51,403 bases of DNA from Clostridia bacterium (GTDB taxonomy: Bacteria; Bacillota; Clostridia; Oscillospirales; CAG-272), in NCBI GenBank assembly GCA_017502975.1, contig JAFVTV010000033.1, positions 1 to 51,403 of the forward strand, given 5' to 3'. The notes under the pieces were generated by a model, which had not been told where the DNA came from, did not search any database, and saw nothing but the letters and a program-made list of their open reading frames with translations. A program made the translations under genes and the position numbers. Positions 17,863-23,101 of this stretch are shown here, piece by piece; positions within the stretch are counted from its first letter, which is position 1, and every line of letters starts with the position of its first letter.

Positions 17863-18762
17863 TTACCGCAGTGCCGAAAGGATCGTGTCGCCGCCCATCA
17901 TAAAGGCGAGCGCTACACACATAGTGACACAGCCGATGATGTTTTTGAGGGAAAGCTTTTCCCCAAGAAACAGGTAGGAGCAAAGGACGCTGAGCATGAG
18001 CACCGCGGAGTTATAGAAGGTGTAAAGCACGGCAAGGTCGACCTTGCCAATGACAATGGTAAGAATATGGATGGAGCCCGCGACAACAAGAGATGCGACA
18101 GTCAAAAGGGCAAGCGAGCGGCGTGATTGCTTCATCACTGCGGGGAAGCTCTTTTTTTGCTTCACTAAGAGCATGGCAAGCGAGCAAAGACTGCACACCC
18201 CAAAGGTGATGGCTACCATTTCCTCCTTTTGCTCCACCGCTGTTAAGCGCTGCTGCACGTCTAGCAGTGAGCCGAACGCGCCGTTGCCGATGGCAAGCAA
18301 GGATACGGCAATCCAAAAGCCCGGCTTTTTTTCGGTGTGGCTGCCCTTATCGCTGATAAGGTAAACACATACCAGCACCACCAAGATGCAAATGATTGCA
18401 AGGGGTGTGAGTGTATCGCCAAAGGTGATGGCACCCGTGAGCGTTGGGATGATAATGCCGCCTGCAATAGAGAAGACCATAAGCACCGAGTAGGGCCCTG
18501 TTTGCGAAGCCTTGATGATGGTGGTGTTATACAGCAGTAGCGCAAAGCCGTTGAAGATACCAAGCAGCCACGTCAGGGGCGATGCCACAAAGTGGAAGCC
18601 ACACATGAAAAGCGAAACCACCACAACGGTAGCGCCGCTAACGGTGCTGAAAACGGGGGATGCATGGCGCGGATCGCCCGGATATTCCGCCGAAAAAAGT
18701 CTGGTTAAAAAGGATTGCGCGGTGTAAAGAAGCACGACCACGCCCATTAAAATATATGTCAT
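17863..18762 (-). CDS. EamA/DMT-family membrane transporter
   Basis: 299 residues with about ten hydrophobic helices in two repeats. Landmarks: N-terminal MTYILMGVVVLLYTAQSFL and C-terminal 'FYNSAVLMLSVLCSYLFLGEKLSLKNIIG', the standard final-repeat motif of EamA transporters. It is only distantly similar to the transporter at 15587. AAGGTGAT precedes the ATG. The upstream gap has a minus-strand TATAAT at 18829-18834 without a good -35 partner. Substrate unknown. Confidence 0.85.
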   Translation of the reverse strand: MTYILMGVVVLLYTAQSFLTRLFSAEYPGDPRHASPVFSTVSGATVVVVSLFMCGFHFVASPLTWLLGIFNGFALLLYNTTIIKASQTGPYSVLMVFSIAGGIIIPTLTGAITFGDTLTPLAIICILVVLVCVYLISDKGSHTEKKPGFWIAVSLLAIGNGAFGSLLDVQQRLTAVEQKEEMVAITFGVCSLCSLAMLLVKQKKSFPAVMKQSRRSLALLTVASLVVAGSIHILTIVIGKVDLAVLYTFYNSAVLMLSVLCSYLFLGEKLSLKNIIGCVTMCVALAFMMGGDTILSALR

Positions 18763-18920
18763 AGTATCACCTTACTTGCCGCAGGAAAATATCTTTTTGG
18801 CTGTTTATTTAAAGATCATTCCAAGAAAATTATAGCAAAAACAGAAAATGATTGCTATGGATGAAACGTAAAAAAATTGTAAAAAACGATAAAAGTTTTT
18901 GCAATATGCGGCAAAATGAC

Positions 18921-18950
18921 TTGATTTTTATTGATTTTACATGTTACAAT
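18921..18950 (+). promoter_or_regulatory. Predicted promoter of the PocR/AraC regulator
   Basis: TTGATT, 18 bases, TACAAT, 32 bases before the ATG. Confidence 0.6.
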
Positions 18951-18982
18951 AGTATTGCATAAGCGAAAGGGAGGTGGTCTTA

Positions 18983-19843
18983 ATGGCAGATACACGCATG
19001 GAGCAGGTGCTTGACAGCTTTTCGCGCCTTACGCAAATCAATGTGGCTGCGTATGATGCACAGTTTCGGTGTATTTACACCAGAATCAACAATGTGGGCT
19101 TTTGCTCTGCCGTGCATGGATCAAGGGAGTGCCTTGCGCGTTGCGTGCAGTCTGATACCGTGGCACTGCGGCAAGTGAAAAAAACGGGAGAGCCTTATCT
19201 GCACACCTGTCCCTTTGGGCTTACCGAGCTTGTTTTTCCCGTCAGGGGTGAGGGCGGAATCGTTGGGTATTTGATCGTTGGTCCCACCGTAAGTGTGTCG
19301 ACCACATCAAACGACCGCGAGCTCTGTCACCTTGTTTGTCTTAAGAGCACGCATTTCAAGGAGGAGGCGCTTTTGGCTGCTGCCGGTAAGCTACCGCACT
19401 GTACCGATGCGCAACTTGAGGCGCTTGAGATGATGGCATTTGTTGTGAAGGAGCACATTGAGGGCAACCGTCTGCTGCTACCCGACCGACAGACACCCGG
19501 GCAGCTGGTGCGCACCTACGTTAAGAAGAATCTTAGTGAAAAGATAACCCTTTCAAAAATGAGCAAAAATCTGCATTGCAGCACCGTGACATTGACCGAG
19601 GCATTTCGCCGTGAGTTTGGCATGACGATCATGGAGTACGTTTTGGCAGAGCGCATGAAGCTGGCGCGTCGGCTGCTGCTGACGACAGCATCGATCACCG
19701 AGATCGCATACAGCTGCGGCTATCCCGATGTGGAATATTTCTCAAAATGCTTTAAGCGTGAAAACGGCGAGCTTTCTCCCACACAGTGGCGCAAAAAGCA
19801 GGGGGAGGCACAGCATAATGCCGCACCCGAGGCACCAAAATAA
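18983..19843 (+). CDS. AraC-family regulator with PocR sensory domain
   Basis: 286 residues. The first ~165 residues match the PocR ligand-binding domain: an N-terminal LDSFSRLTQINVAAYD, a scatter of conserved cysteines (FCSAVHG, CLARCVQSD, HTCPFGL) and a VGYLIVGP core. The C-terminal ~100 residues are an AraC double helix-turn-helix (KITLSKMSKNLHCSTVTLTE ... ITEIAYSCGYPDVEYFSKCF). PocR-domain regulators often respond to small metabolites such as 1,2-propanediol. The ATG at 18983 is used rather than GTG 18974, with AAAGGGAGG upstream. It lies directly before the A+T-rich islet and is in the same orientation, but a terminator separates them. Its regulon is unknown. Confidence 0.9.
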   Translation: MADTRMEQVLDSFSRLTQINVAAYDAQFRCIYTRINNVGFCSAVHGSRECLARCVQSDTVALRQVKKTGEPYLHTCPFGLTELVFPVRGEGGIVGYLIVGPTVSVSTTSNDRELCHLVCLKSTHFKEEALLAAAGKLPHCTDAQLEALEMMAFVVKEHIEGNRLLLPDRQTPGQLVRTYVKKNLSEKITLSKMSKNLHCSTVTLTEAFRREFGMTIMEYVLAERMKLARRLLLTTASITEIAYSCGYPDVEYFSKCFKRENGELSPTQWRKKQGEAQHNAAPEAPK

Positions 19844-19907
19844 CACACTGTTTTGCCCATTTGCAAAATTTAATCGGATTGAAGAATAGTTTTGCCCTTC
19901 GAATATA

Positions 19908-19943
19908 GGCCCCTGTAAGCCGTTGGCTCGCAGGAGCCTTTTT
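19908..19943 (+). terminator. Terminator of the PocR/AraC gene
   Basis: GGCCCCTGTAAGCC / GGCTCGCAGGAGCC stem with two mismatches and a GTT loop, followed by TTTTT. Confidence 0.75.
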
Positions 19944-19955
19944 GTATAGATGAAA

Positions 19956-20021
19956 TTCATGTGCATGAAACATCATAAAAATATTTCGCAATAAAAATTT
20001 TAAACCGGACAAAACCTGTCC
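19956..20021. promoter_or_regulatory. Two palindromes in the islet's upstream region
   Basis: TTCATG-TG-CATGAA (19956-19969) and GGACA-AAACC-TGTCC (20007-20021). Both are perfect arms and sit between the regulator's terminator and the first islet gene. They are plausible operators. No convincing promoter was identified, so this is a weak inference. Confidence 0.4.
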
Positions 20022-20075
20022 TATTTGGATGTTAATCTATAGGTGCAGCTGCAAAATACAATCAAGGAGAATATT

Positions 20076-20750
20076 ATGAAAACTATTTTTGGAGTTAGTT
20101 CAATGTTACCGTCTAACCAAAAACTAAAAAACGGGTACACAATGTATGACTGGGTTATGAGGCAAAAGTGCTTTCCTACATTTTGGGGAAGAGGCCTTTT
20201 AGGGCCTCATGCCATTACCGAAGAAGAAGTGGCTTTTTTGCGATCTAAAAATTGCAAGATTATGCTTGTTGTGCAGGATTTGACCGAGGCAGAGGTTTCG
20301 GGCTCTAATGGGGTAAAGGAAGCGTTTCGCGTGGTGGAAAGCGCAAGAAAATTGAATGTCCCGCAGGACAACAGCGTTACCATTTTTGCGGAATTTAAGC
20401 CGGATTGGAGTGTAAATCATAACTGGATGATTGGCTTTGCCGGGATTCTTTCCATGAACGGATACATCCCCGGATTTATTGGCAACACAGATTCGGCAAA
20501 AAATTTCAATTTTGATCGTCAATGCAGTCACTATGTACAAGCTACCGAGAAGGTGAATCAGTTTGGTGCAGTCTATATGGCAACAGAACCAAAATGCAGT
20601 AAACCGCCGCAAAAGTGGAAGCCTTTTTGCCCCTCTGCTTTGAATCGTGAGGACATGCATTTGTGGAAAACAGGAACCACGACATTTGACAAATTTGTGG
20701 TGGAAGACATTTATGCACGCGACAAAGCCGTGCTTGACAAAATTTGGTAA
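20076..20750 (+). CDS. Putative DUF1906-like (glycoside-hydrolase-like TIM barrel) protein
   Basis: 224 residues, no signal peptide or membrane helix. The pattern ITEEEVAFLRSKNCKIMLVV, then an Ala-rich helix, LNVPQDNSVTIFAE, and WMIGFAGILSMNGYIPGFIG resembles the beta-strand/helix order of the DUF1906 (Rv2525c-like) glycoside-hydrolase-like barrel. The acid in IFAEF would sit where that fold has its active-site acid. This is pattern recognition, not a proven hit. ATG start with AAGGAGA upstream. It is first of four closely spaced genes with visibly lower G+C than its surroundings; the next ATG is ten bases after its stop. A role as an envelope-acting effector is possible. Confidence 0.7.
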   Translation: MKTIFGVSSMLPSNQKLKNGYTMYDWVMRQKCFPTFWGRGLLGPHAITEEEVAFLRSKNCKIMLVVQDLTEAEVSGSNGVKEAFRVVESARKLNVPQDNSVTIFAEFKPDWSVNHNWMIGFAGILSMNGYIPGFIGNTDSAKNFNFDRQCSHYVQATEKVNQFGAVYMATEPKCSKPPQKWKPFCPSALNREDMHLWKTGTTTFDKFVVEDIYARDKAVLDKIW

Positions 20751-20760
20751 AGGAGATATA

Positions 20761-22020
20761 ATGAAAATGACAGCAGAACAGTATAATAATGTTGTAAAAT
20801 GCACGATGAAGCGAGAGGAATTCCCTAAAGGTGCAGATTCATTTGAGCAAGCGCGTGTTATTTTTAAAAATTTGGGCGTTGCTTTGCCGCAGGGAACCAG
20901 AAGGCAAGTTTTAGATCTTTTGCAGACTAACGACTATATGGGGTGGAGGTCATGTACGGCGCAAGAAGCACAACAGTATGCAAACAAAGGTGTCGCAGCC
21001 ATTGGCGTTGGGGAAGACCGTATGGTAATTCTTGCCGCAGTAACAGAAGAGAATGAAATTGAAGAAACTGTTGCGGCAAAAACCCCCATGGTGATGACAC
21101 TTCAGGCGGATGCTATTACCGACGCAGCTCCAGATCTTGCCTTTTATGCCTACAGTTATGACACAACGACCACGCAGTCCTCGACGGATACTACAGAATC
21201 GGTGGATCAATACCGTGATGTATATACCTATGAATTGGTACATATGTTTGGCTTTTCCCAAAGCACCGCTTTGCTGATTCGATCCTTGTATGATAAGATG
21301 GATCAAAAATTCCCGTCGGACTCTAAGTTGGAGAGAGCTTGGAAATGTGCCCGACTACTGGGGGGGATTGAATATGGAAATGAAAATGAAAGCATTCTTA
21401 TGCAAACATTATGGAAACAATTCGCAGGAGAAGTATGTTCTATAGGAGAAGAGCAAGCCTATTTTATCACCACATTGGGTTATACTTTGGAAGAATACGA
21501 TCAATTGACGATTGATATTCACTCGCAACATAATAATAGTACAACTTCTGATTTTGTACATATGCAAATGGCTTTGGCTACAAGATTGGCGTATTTATTA
21601 AACAAACAGAAAATTTTGGCGGATATTGCCGCTATATTTGTTGAAGAAGATGCTGCTTATGTTGGTGGTTGGTTGGGTGATACATCACTTGCTCGTGTGG
21701 GCTTTGAGCCTAGCATGCGTAATGCTGATTATTGCGCGGATCTGGATGCAGAAAATCTTTATCATTTCATCCTTGACAAAGGTAATTCAATTAGCGGATT
21801 TAATTATTATTTTTCTACCGTGCCGCACACTTATGTTACCCGTATAGATTTGTTTTTGATTTATTTAAGTTATGATTTTGTGCAACAAAAGGTGTTTTGG
21901 TATCTCGGAGTGAAAAATGAAGAAGACCCTATGGGCATTATCAAGCAAAGATACCCTGATACGTATAATTTTTTGTGCAGTATTAGAGACAGACGATCCA
22001 CTATGGCAGAATATGAATAA
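20761..22020 (+). CDS. Large unknown islet protein, possible multi-domain effector
   Basis: 419 residues; not recognised. It has three visible parts. The N-terminal ~95 residues include WRSCTAQEAQQYANKGVAAI, which resembles the 'W-V-S-x-EAQ-x-x-AN-x-G' stretch of CHAP-type cell-wall hydrolases, without an obvious catalytic pair. A Thr/Ser-rich linker (TTTTQSSTDTTES, about 138-152) follows. The C-terminal ~230 residues contain spaced acidic motifs: DFVHMQMALATRLAYLL, GGWLGDTS and DYCADLDAENLYHF. These look like conserved functional clusters. No signal peptide. The ATG at 20761 is chosen because AAAGGAGATATA lies directly before it and the longer frame overlaps gene 1. The stop is 20 bases from the next gene. 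Confidence 0.75.
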   Translation: MKMTAEQYNNVVKCTMKREEFPKGADSFEQARVIFKNLGVALPQGTRRQVLDLLQTNDYMGWRSCTAQEAQQYANKGVAAIGVGEDRMVILAAVTEENEIEETVAAKTPMVMTLQADAITDAAPDLAFYAYSYDTTTTQSSTDTTESVDQYRDVYTYELVHMFGFSQSTALLIRSLYDKMDQKFPSDSKLERAWKCARLLGGIEYGNENESILMQTLWKQFAGEVCSIGEEQAYFITTLGYTLEEYDQLTIDIHSQHNNSTTSDFVHMQMALATRLAYLLNKQKILADIAAIFVEEDAAYVGGWLGDTSLARVGFEPSMRNADYCADLDAENLYHFILDKGNSISGFNYYFSTVPHTYVTRIDLFLIYLSYDFVQQKVFWYLGVKNEEDPMGIIKQRYPDTYNFLCSIRDRRSTMAEYE

Positions 22021-22040
22021 ATCTTGATTTGGAGAGAACC

Positions 22041-22520
22041 ATGAAAACCAAAAAACGAATGTTATACGCAATGTATCTCACGGTGCTTTTTCTCACATTG
22101 TGTGTCTTTGTTGTCAGTATAATGGGGGCTTTGTTTGAACCGCCGGCACCGGGCGCGAGTGGTCTGTTGCTTGCCAGAGGATTGGCTGTGTGTATTATAT
22201 GCATACTGTTTATTCCCCTACTGATTGCTGAATTTGAAATCTTTTACTGTGCAAAATATTTTTTGCTTACAAAGCGAAACAAAAAAAGCATAGAATCTTG
22301 CGTTAATATCGTTTTTTGCGTGCTTTCTGTGGTACTACCGTTATTTGCAGCCGCGGCTTGGTTGTTTTGGCGGAGAATTGTTGACGATGTGTCATTTGCA
22401 ATCCTTTTGCTTTGGATGCTCGCAGAACCGATATATAGATTGCTGCATTTATTGTACACCAAGCTTCTCGGGGCACAACCGCAACTGCAGTCTTGCAGCA
22501 CAGAAGGGAGAAATTTATGA
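22041..22520 (+). CDS. Four-helix membrane protein, tandem paralogue 1
   Basis: 159 residues. Four predicted membrane helices (about 8-30, 45-70, 92-110, 118-138) with a basic N-terminus (MKTKKR). The central block PLLIAEFEIF...KRNKKSIESCVNIVFCVLS recurs in the next protein. The family is not recognised. The ATG at 22041 is preceded by GGAGAG. Its final codons overlap the next start (ATGA), implying translational coupling. In a toxin-type islet, small tandem membrane proteins of this kind often serve as immunity proteins; here that is only inference. Confidence 0.75.
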   Translation: MKTKKRMLYAMYLTVLFLTLCVFVVSIMGALFEPPAPGASGLLLARGLAVCIICILFIPLLIAEFEIFYCAKYFLLTKRNKKSIESCVNIVFCVLSVVLPLFAAAAWLFWRRIVDDVSFAILLLWMLAEPIYRLLHLLYTKLLGAQPQLQSCSTEGRNL

Positions 22521-23029
22521 GCGATAAAGCCAAAAAAATTGTTTTAAACGTTTCTTTTACCACCCTTGTGTTGCTGACGGTAGCTGCACCGTTTATTTGC
22601 TGGAATTGCATAATCGATGCCGTGCGCGCCACGACTGATCCTGAACCGATATTGGCCGTTGCACCGATTTTCGGGGTTGCCATGCTCGTCTTGGGGATTA
22701 CACTGCCCCTGTTAATTGCGAGCTTTGAAATATGGCATTTGATAAAATGCCGTTTGTTTTCGAGTCGGCGATTGCGCTTTGAATCTGTTTTGAACAGGGT
22801 TCTTTGCAGGCTATCGATCTTTTTCCTGCTGCTTGGAATTGTTTATGTTTTGTTAGAGTTAAGCGGGAGTTTTATGAATGTTGATTTTCTGTTTGCAAGT
22901 GTAATGATTTGGGAAGCTGTGTATTTGCTGTTTCGCGTAACGTATTTTATTGCATACACCGTGATCGCGTGCAGGGAAAAAATAGTGAAACAAAAAGGGC
23001 AAGATACGACGTTACGGGCTTGCGAATAA
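22517..23029 (+). CDS. Four-helix membrane protein, tandem paralogue 2
   Basis: 170 residues, four predicted membrane helices, basic N-terminus. It shares with its neighbour the order: helix 1, short loop with Pro/Glu, helix 2 ending PLLIASFEIWHLIKC, a basic loop RRLRFESVLNRVLCRLS, then helices 3 and 4. The similarity is low but colinear, consistent with an old duplication. ATGA overlap with the previous gene, with AAGGGAG as ribosome site. A strong terminator follows nine bases after the stop, marking the end of the islet operon. Confidence 0.75.
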   Translation: MSDKAKKIVLNVSFTTLVLLTVAAPFICWNCIIDAVRATTDPEPILAVAPIFGVAMLVLGITLPLLIASFEIWHLIKCRLFSSRRLRFESVLNRVLCRLSIFFLLLGIVYVLLELSGSFMNVDFLFASVMIWEAVYLLFRVTYFIAYTVIACREKIVKQKGQDTTLRACE

Positions 23030-23037
23030 AAGCAAGG

Positions 23038-23078
23038 GGGCTGCTTCAAATGCTAATGCACTTGAAGCAGCCCTTTTT
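23038..23078. terminator. Strong bidirectional terminator closing the islet
   Basis: Perfect 12-bp stem GGGCTGCTTCAA / TTGAAGCAGCCC with a 12-base loop, followed by TTTTT on the plus strand. On the minus strand it ends the small gene at 23102 and is followed by a C/T-rich run. Confidence 0.92.
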
Positions 23079-23101
23079 CTGTGTGTTAAAAAACTACTGT
23101 G

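What the first reader, a model, noticed from the sequence alone, without database searches (positions are those of the whole stretch)
20076..23029. A+T-rich four-gene islet with an unknown effector-like protein and two membrane partners
Seen: four tightly spaced plus-strand genes (gaps 10 and 20 bases, then a 4-base overlap), visibly lower G+C than both flanks, bounded by terminators at 19908-19943 and 23038-23078 and lacking mobility genes. Product order: DUF1906-like barrel, 419-residue multi-part unknown, two four-helix membrane paralogues. Known: DUF1906 barrels resemble cell-wall-acting glycoside hydrolases. Inference: a cassette of envelope-acting effectors with membrane partners (immunity, export or anchoring), or a defence/competition module. 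It is the strongest candidate here for an undescribed system.
Basis: partly seen in the sequence, partly recalled or inferred. Interest (0 to 1): 0.75.

Follow-up and report, generated by a model that had tools for sequence, protein, structure and literature searches.

The report
Leaderless TelC-type toxin cassette, gut Clostridium
A four-gene insert in a gut Clostridia genome most likely encodes a protein that attacks the building blocks of other bacteria's cell walls, a constant partner protein, and two membrane proteins that probably protect the producer; it belongs to a family of interchangeable toxin cassettes that seems not to use the export machine known for this kind of toxin.

Summary
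In detail: four close-set plus-strand genes at 20076-23029, G+C 0.416, the lowest islet-sized stretch of the window. Gene 2 is two modules. Residues 141-419 match one solved structure, 5UKH (TelC, calcium-dependent lipid II phosphatase toxin of Streptococcus intermedius), E 4e-9, with its Asp-rich motif. Residues 1-96 are an undescribed domain (ND). Gene 1 is a diverged Rv2525c-like barrel. In related gut Clostridia MAGs the gene 1 + ND pair is constant while the tail changes: Amidase_3, phage-tail lysozyme, C39-like, CHAP-like. One genome has two cassettes, 94% (gene 1) and 96% (ND) identical, with tails that do not align: a polymorphic-toxin signature. The closest sibling lacks the islet; another keeps genes 3-4 beside a gene 2 scar. 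EssC (T7SSb) passed the cut-off in none of 15 carriers tested, and genes 1-2 show no signal peptide, so delivery is unlikely to be TelC's. Best reading: an antibacterial TelC-tipped polymorphic toxin on a new two-protein carrier, genes 3-4 probable immunity. The latter is inferred: no relative of genes 3-4 accompanies other cassettes, and weak paralogues, once in tandem, lie away from toxins. Gene 1 is probably not an enzyme. A 2025 paper already reports TelC fused to Rv2525c-like barrels.

The parts
20076..20750 (+). g1: diverged Rv2525c/DUF1906-like TIM-barrel protein, no signal peptide seen; constant partner gene of the cassette ('type A')
   Evidence: phmmer to PDB 1sfs E 6.5e-8; relatives near PF08924 cut-off; 12 intact type A copies; Asp8 lost in most type A
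20761..21048 (+). g2 N-terminal domain (ND, residues 1-96): constant docking/targeting-like module
   Evidence: aligned in 12 proteins, 13 invariant columns; in the family draw found only in genomes with type A g1; no Pfam match and no significant PDB match
21049..21180 (+). g2 linker (residues 97-140), variable, with a short aromatic motif shared by most relatives
   Evidence: alignment A2
21181..22020 (+). g2 C-terminal toxin domain (residues 141-419), TelC-like (lipocone); DFVH 264-267, GWLGD 303-307, DYCADLDAEN 323-332
   Evidence: phmmer to PDB 5ukh E 4.2e-9, only hit at E<=10; positions; identity and activity of 5UKH from PMC5555719
22041..22520 (+). g3: multi-helix (about 4 TM) membrane protein, candidate immunity protein
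   Evidence: hydropathy; kept without g1-g2 in sibling G037, 87% identical
22517..23029 (+). g4: multi-helix (about 4 TM) membrane protein, paralogue of g3, candidate immunity protein
   Evidence: BLASTP to g3 E 4e-6; kept in G037, 74% identical
23038..23073 (.). strong hairpin terminator closing the operon
   Evidence: sequence; hairpin kept in G037
19800..23088 (.). extent of the stretch absent from sibling genome G140 (115 bp there instead)
   Evidence: blastn of orthologous locus L070

Best explanation
The islet is a polymorphic antibacterial toxin cassette. g2 is the toxin: its tail is a TelC-type enzyme predicted to cut lipid II between undecaprenol and pyrophosphate outside the cytoplasmic membrane of a rival bacterium (shown: sequence homology and motif; inferred: activity and target). 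g1 and the g2 N-domain form a constant carrier unit, probably a complex in which g1, a barrel that has mostly lost its conserved Asp, acts as adaptor or wall/receptor binder and ND docks the toxin to it (shown: co-occurrence and tail swapping; inferred: contact and role). Neither has a visible signal peptide and the carriers tested show no T7SSb ATPase, so release is by lysis or an unidentified exporter (inferred). g3 and g4 sit in the membrane and protect the producer (inferred from operon position, toxin type, retention without the toxin, and fast amino-acid change).
For: TelC homology E 4.2e-9, sole PDB hit at E<=10. Other tails on the same ND: Phage_lysozyme2 E 4e-21 and 4e-30, Amidase_3 1e-6, and just under cut-off C39_2 2e-4 and CHAP 2e-5. 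Two cassettes of one genome (L080/L081): g1 94%, ND 96%, tails with local score z 2.7 only; window against L036: g1 65%, ND 54%, tails z -0.6. Pairing: 10 of 12 intact type A g1 are directly followed by an ND gene, the other two have one nearby (L033 divergent, L019 second gene). ND in 3 of 196 family genomes, all with type A g1. Lipoproteins or small membrane proteins beside 10 of 11 type A loci listed, the exception being L031, whose ND has no tail. Sibling sites: whole islet absent in G140; G037 has intact g3-g4 plus a g2 3' remnant (score 44; 500 control stretches mean 23, max 36). dN/dS 0.37 and 0.63 for g3, g4 against 0.10-0.11 in two flanking genes; dS 0.18 and 0.24 against 0.71-0.88, so the islet moved between species recently. 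EssC over cut-off in 0 of 30 genomes including 15 carriers; the same search passed the cut-off in 1 of 14 control genomes.
Against: The first half of the TelC alignment is weak (i-Evalue 12; second half 3.7e-6). No structure model could be made. g3/g4 match no PDB entry significantly. Weak g3 relatives (E up to 0.01) occur in G000 (a second copy), G037 (a second copy) and 10 more of 196 family genomes, only one of which (G034) has g1, and there on another contig; in the 6 such neighbourhoods read there was no g1-g2, and in G119 the g3-like gene stands in tandem with a similar small membrane gene, so the pair could be a general membrane type. No g3/g4 relative in the other cassettes. No delivery machine identified. 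Some cassettes share a tail (L018/L036, L032a/L032b). Decay is common: a broken g1 without ND in G193, L031 without a tail, L029 with a short one.
Confidence: 0.68

Rival explanations
1. The cassette is an own-cell lysis or wall-remodelling unit (mother-cell lysis, sporulation or prophage-derived endolysin) rather than a weapon; leaderless hydrolases act on the producer, and genes 3-4 help release them.
For: Several tails are PG hydrolase domains; no signal peptides seen; Phage_lysozyme2 is a phage tail domain; g3-g4 are small membrane proteins.
Against: No phage or viral-contig relative of g1 or g2 found (the viral scans are pattern-based and of limited reach); patchy presence (12 of 196, 8 of 295, 2 of 291 genomes) does not fit a developmental function; different tails in one genome; cytoplasmic TelC is reported non-toxic (PMC5555719); no g3/g4 relative beside the pair elsewhere.
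Confidence: 0.13
2. g3 and g4 are not immunity proteins but an export or release pair for g2, or unrelated cargo of the islet.
For: Weak g3 relatives occur away from g1-g2, once as a tandem pair of small membrane genes; no homologue beside other cassettes; two paralogues of about 4 TM could form a channel.
Against: They are kept without the toxin in G037 with open frames and a toxin scar; an exporter would be expected to be conserved with the constant carrier, not to change with the toxin tip; reported Lipocone-toxin immunities are TM or lipoproteins, one with a 4-TM core, seen there with Min-Wnt toxins (PMC12419801).
Confidence: 0.33
3. The match to TelC is a shared fold without lipid II phosphatase activity (another lipid-head-group enzyme of the lipocone superfamily).
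For: Low identity; the lipocone superfamily spans several head-group chemistries (PMC12419801).
Against: The DFxH, GWxGD and DYxADLDxxN motifs are kept, including an Asp six places after another Asp, which fits a feature the paper gives for the TelC families (that this is the same Asp pair is my reading).
Confidence: 0.25

Closest known systems
TelC / TipC of Streptococcus intermedius (LXG T7SSb toxin, lipid II phosphatase; PDB 5UKH)
   Same: C-terminal toxin domain with the Asp-rich motif; toxin followed by paralogous membrane-bound genes (most tipC-containing bacteria have several tipC paralogues, PMC6193138 section 8)
   Different: No LXG domain recognised, no EssC over cut-off in carriers tested, no LXG-type chaperone recognised in the islet; carrier is a Rv2525c-like barrel plus ND; g3/g4 are about 4-TM proteins, TipC is one TM plus an exposed domain
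TelC domains fused to PG-binding domains and a Rv2525c-like TIM barrel (PMC12419801, 2025)
   Same: TelC combined with a Rv2525c-like barrel; some Bacillota; interpreted as conflict systems engaging the cell wall; in Actinomycetota one form is coupled to a rapidly evolving 3-TM protein
   Different: There fused in one chain; here two genes, with ND between barrel and toxin, and the same pair carries other tails. I read the text of sections 29-31 and passages, not the figures or source tables, so I cannot say whether this cassette is among theirs
Polymorphic toxin systems (Rhs, LXG, CDI; general features partly recalled)
   Same: Constant N-terminal part, exchangeable toxin tail, linked probable immunity, orphan immunity
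   Different: Constant part is split over two leaderless genes of a kind not found in my searches
Rv2525c / 1sfs (PF08924)
   Same: g1 homology by sequence
   Different: Asp of the first strand lost in 9 of 11 type A copies; no signal peptide seen

Membership tests
Prok-TelC toxin domain | Sequence homology to TelC toxin domain | tested here: met
   phmmer to 5ukh E 4.2e-9; best stretch residues 118-268 of the domain, i-Evalue 3.7e-6; first stretch i-Evalue 12
Prok-TelC toxin domain | Conserved Asp-rich Ca2+-binding motif | tested here: met
   GWLGD and DYCADLDAEN align with GWEGD and DYKADLDSVN; metal binding not tested
Prok-TelC toxin domain | Lipid II phosphatase activity, toxic only outside the cytoplasm | not testable with these tools
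   needs bench assay
T7SSb LXG toxin | N-terminal LXG domain | tested here: not met
   no Pfam, NCBIfam or PADLOC match at the N-terminus
T7SSb LXG toxin | EssC in the producing genome | tested here: not met
   TIGR03928 over cut-off in 0 of 30 genomes, 15 of them g1 carriers (7 of type A); 29 of 30 give a weaker match of about 220 residues, which I take for FtsK/SpoIIIE-type ATPases. G000 is 84% complete; carriers known only from genome contigs were not tested
Polymorphic toxin system | Constant N-terminal region with exchangeable C-terminal toxins | tested here: met
Polymorphic toxin system | Cognate immunity gene beside the toxin | tested here: inconclusive
   position, membrane nature and orphan retention fit; no protection test; weak relatives away from toxins
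Rv2525c-like glycoside-hydrolase family (PF08924) | Sequence homology | tested here: met
   1sfs E 6.5e-8 (that 1sfs belongs to this family is recalled); no Pfam hit of g1 itself; relatives E 1e-3 and 5e-6, both under the cut-off
Rv2525c-like glycoside-hydrolase family (PF08924) | Conserved acidic residues of the pocket (role recalled) | tested here: not met
   Asp8 is Ser in the window; 2 of 11 type A and 16 of 16 type B keep Asp; Glu106 is kept in the window and in 6 of 12 type A
TipC immunity family | One TM helix plus exposed alpha/beta domain | tested here: not met
   g3, g4 have about 4 hydrophobic helices and no large soluble part; TipC architecture from the abstract of PMC6193138

The most novel reading that the evidence does not exclude
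Gut Clostridia own an undescribed toxin-delivery platform: a leaderless, mostly catalytically dead Rv2525c-like barrel plus a docking module (ND in type A, Big_2 Ig-like repeats in type B) that carries interchangeable toxins (TelC, lysozymes, amidases, Rhs) out of the cell without Sec, Tat or T7SS. In several relatives the pair is encoded beside an acyl carrier protein, an AMP-forming ligase, a BtrH-like transferase and once a radical-SAM maturase, which would modify the carrier or toxin, much as acyl-ACP-dependent enzymes activate RTX toxins (comparison recalled).
Probability: 0.3. Interest if true: 0.85.

Novelty: new variant of a known kind. Interest (0 to 1): 0.66.

Why it matters
The TelC tip, whose one studied case is exported by T7SSb, appears here on a different carrier in gut Clostridia whose tested genomes show no EssC over the cut-off. 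If right, it gives a testable toxin, two candidate immunity proteins of a new type for TelC, and a constant gene pair by which more such cassettes can be found. The question of how a leaderless toxin pair leaves a cell without T7SSb becomes testable. Related clusters with acyl-carrier and BtrH-like genes hint at toxin modification of a kind that I did not find in the papers listed by my searches.

Tried and rejected
Direct family scans of g1-g4 (Pfam, NCBIfam, PHROGs, PADLOC) gave nothing significant. Searches for g2 or its tail by peptide patterns in viral contigs and genome contigs, and by tblastn, found no relative (g2; tail: 44, 94; the tail was not searched in phages); one weak plasmid match to ND (Paenibacillus, E 0.8) and one to g1 (Alicyclobacillus, E 2e-5, annotated glycoside hydrolase domain protein) were not followed. 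The tail gave one 42-residue match at E 1e-3 besides the window itself in 291 class genomes, left aside. PDB searches for g3, g4, ND and the L081 tail were empty or chance; the L036 tail hit designed TIM barrels (E 1e-4 to 8e-4) with no stretch passing on its own and was disregarded. A perfect sigma-70 hexamer pair at 20734-20762 overlaps the ribosome site and start of g2 and was judged chance. T7SSb delivery was considered and rejected. The BtrH-like cluster as a required partner was rejected for this genome: no match in G000. Structure prediction, and hence fold searches, could not be run. Contractile-injection, holin or other exporters were not searched for. Literature: searches; seen as listings only, except PMC12419801 (sections 29-31 in full, and passages), PMC5555719 (passages) and PMC6193138 (abstract, outline and section 8). 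'Undescribed' means not found in these searches.
Full report
What is there. Four plus-strand genes lie at 20076-20750, 20761-22020, 22041-22520 and 22517-23029, with gaps of 10 and 20 bases and a 4-base overlap. The islet's G+C, 0.416, is below that of every non-overlapping islet-sized stretch of the window, and GC3 is 0.36-0.47 against 0.58-0.59 in the two neighbouring genes. A strong hairpin at 23038-23073 and a weaker one at 19925-19938 bound it. The host is a 1.66-Mb assembly in 56 contigs, 84% complete.

Gene 2 is a toxin. Its C-terminal 279 residues have a single match in the PDB at E<=10: 5ukh, E 4.2e-9, the second of two collinear stretches carrying most of the score. 5UKH is TelC, a calcium-dependent phosphatase that cuts lipid II at the link to undecaprenyl; mutation of its Asp-rich motif abolished toxicity, and cytoplasmic TelC was non-toxic (passages of PMC5555719). 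The motifs DFxH, GWxGD and DYxADLDxxN are shared. Residues 1-96 form a domain (ND) without significant database relatives.

Gene 1 and ND are a constant pair. The family draw of 196 genomes held g1 relatives in 12, the order draw in 8 of 295, the class draw in 2 of 291, each count including the window's own genome, and the draws overlap. The genome-contig scan added named MAGs, 22 loci in all, several being the same genomes. The relatives fall into type A (44-66% identical) and type B (28-35%). Of 33 distinct g1 frames, 16 are type B (two nearly identical), 12 intact type A (one cut by a contig end), one is a 709-residue fusion (G037), and 4 are fragments, broken or cut by locus ends. Ten of the 12 type A are followed directly by an ND gene; L033 has one divergent beside it; L019 has first a gene with a truncated ND and then a second, ND-bearing gene. 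Of 16 type B, one lies at a contig end and the other 15 are followed by a gene starting with Big_2-like repeats (the profile was built from seven of them). In the reverse test a profile of ND hit 3 of 196 family genomes, all with type A g1; the fourth genome there with a type A g1, G193, has it broken and lacks ND. The ND profile was built from these same proteins, so the forward count rests on position and alignment (35-54% identity to the window's ND).

The tails change. On ND sit Phage_lysozyme2 (two in L032), Amidase_3, and C39-like and CHAP-like domains just under their cut-offs; L018 and L036 share a lysozyme-looking tail that no library assigns (by eye). L018 also has a ricin-lectin and a Big_2 segment. 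L080 and L081, from one genome, have g1 94% and ND 96% identical, while their tails show only a weak local score (z 2.7; both may be papain-like, which is by eye for L081). L029 and L036 have g1 92% and ND 88% identical; L029's tail is only some 38 residues long. L018/L036 and L032a/L032b share tails (z 49 and 22). Of the type B g2 proteins scanned, 4 of 10 have Rhs repeats, one of these ending in DUF4474, and one has an alpha/beta-hydrolase. This is the hallmark of polymorphic toxins.

Immunity. Beside 10 of 11 type A loci listed lie lipoproteins or small membrane proteins; arrays of secreted or lipoproteins occur in L025 (type B), L032, L033, L079 and L081 (by a simple lipobox and hydropathy rule or by eye, with no control set). 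The exception, L031, has an ND without a tail. In the window this place is taken by g3-g4. Sibling G140, the closest of 20 by the flanking radical-SAM gene (flanks 95-98% identical), lacks the whole stretch 19800-23088. In sibling G037 g1-g2 are gone, g3-g4 are intact, and the last bases of g2 remain as a scar. Of 7 sibling sites read, none has g1-g2; in one (L072) the neighbourhood differs too much to call the site empty. g4 was found in 2 of 21 genus genomes, G000 and G037. Between these two, dS of g3 and g4 is 0.18 and 0.24 against 0.71-0.88 in two flanking genes, so the islet spread between the species after they split; dN/dS is 0.37 and 0.63 against 0.10-0.11. All this fits immunity genes kept after toxin loss. 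Against it: weak g3 relatives stand away from g1-g2 in G000, G037 and 10 more of 196 family genomes (some at E near 0.01). I read 6 of these neighbourhoods and saw no g1-g2; in G119 the g3-like gene is in tandem with a similar one. No g3/g4 relative (E<=0.1) lies in any other cassette locus held.

Delivery. g1 and g2 show no signal peptide or TM stretch (by eye and hydropathy). The T7SSb ATPase EssC passed its cut-off in 0 of 30 genomes, 15 of them g1 carriers; 29 of 30 gave a weaker match of about 220 residues that I take for FtsK-type ATPases; one of 14 control genomes passed. So the TelC export route seems absent. g1 is related to 1sfs and PF08924, but the first-strand Asp, present in 16 of 16 type B, is present in 2 of 11 type A, while the motifs around WSVNHNWM and GNTDSSxNFNFDRQ are nearly fixed. 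I read g1 as an adaptor or binder, not an enzyme. Lysis-type release, as for colicins (recalled), is the simplest route; no exporter was searched for.

A wider setting. In six relatives (L034/L019, L037, L022/L040, L041, L044, L027/L049) the pair lies beside genes for NTP_transf_5, dTMP-kinase-like, an acyl carrier protein (PF00550 in the one scanned, the rest by eye), a BtrH_N-like protein and an AMP-forming ligase, in three of them also a CYTH protein, and in L034/L019 a radical-SAM protein nearest to PapB-type peptide maturases but under their cut-off. A BtrH profile hits 23 of 196 family genomes and 7 of the 12 with g1 (hypergeometric p 7e-5, uncorrected for kinship), but not G000. It is a lead, not part of this islet.

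Known or new. TelC tips and polymorphic toxins are known; a 2025 survey reports TelC fused to a Rv2525c-like barrel in some Bacillota and sees conflict systems there (PMC12419801, section 31). New here, as far as my searches go, are the two-gene carrier, ND, the range of tails on it, the absence of EssC in tested carriers, and 4-TM candidate immunity for TelC. I rate it a new variant of a known kind.

Noticed in passing
L022/L040, L027/L049, L037, L041, L044 upstream of type B g1; L034/L019 upstream of type A g1: Cluster NTP_transf_5, dTMP-kinase-like, acyl carrier protein, BtrH_N-like, AMP-forming ligase, in three loci also CYTH, ahead of the toxin pair: possible toxin-acylating enzymes.
   Followed up: partly
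L019:7814-12298: Cys-rich repeat protein (CQxxCQ-type) behind g1, with a radical-SAM/SPASM gene upstream (nearest NCBIfam PapB, under cut-off): possible peptide-modified member of the cassette family.
   Followed up: no
L025:8075-11429, L024:7254-10426, L026:7326-8444, L078:4567-5535: Secreted proteins that look like leucine-rich repeats (by eye), in L025 three in a row, beside type B cassettes; possible immunity or decoy genes.
   Followed up: no
L028:4902-7016 (G037): g1-like domain in one chain with an unknown tail of some 470 residues, with a small membrane protein behind it.
   Followed up: no
L029:6925-7329 and L035:8751-9140: Two similar small proteins (by eye) of about 130 residues directly behind decayed cassettes in two genomes.
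   Followed up: no
window 17866-19042: The EamA-type transporter gene beside the islet is also missing from sibling G140, so the site may be a wider hot spot of gain and loss.
   Followed up: partly
L099:3217-5422 (G000 contig 19); L104:3629-4604 (G119): Runs of small membrane or lipoprotein genes that include a g3 relative, similar in G037 and G140: an orphan immunity array or an unknown membrane cluster.
   Followed up: partly
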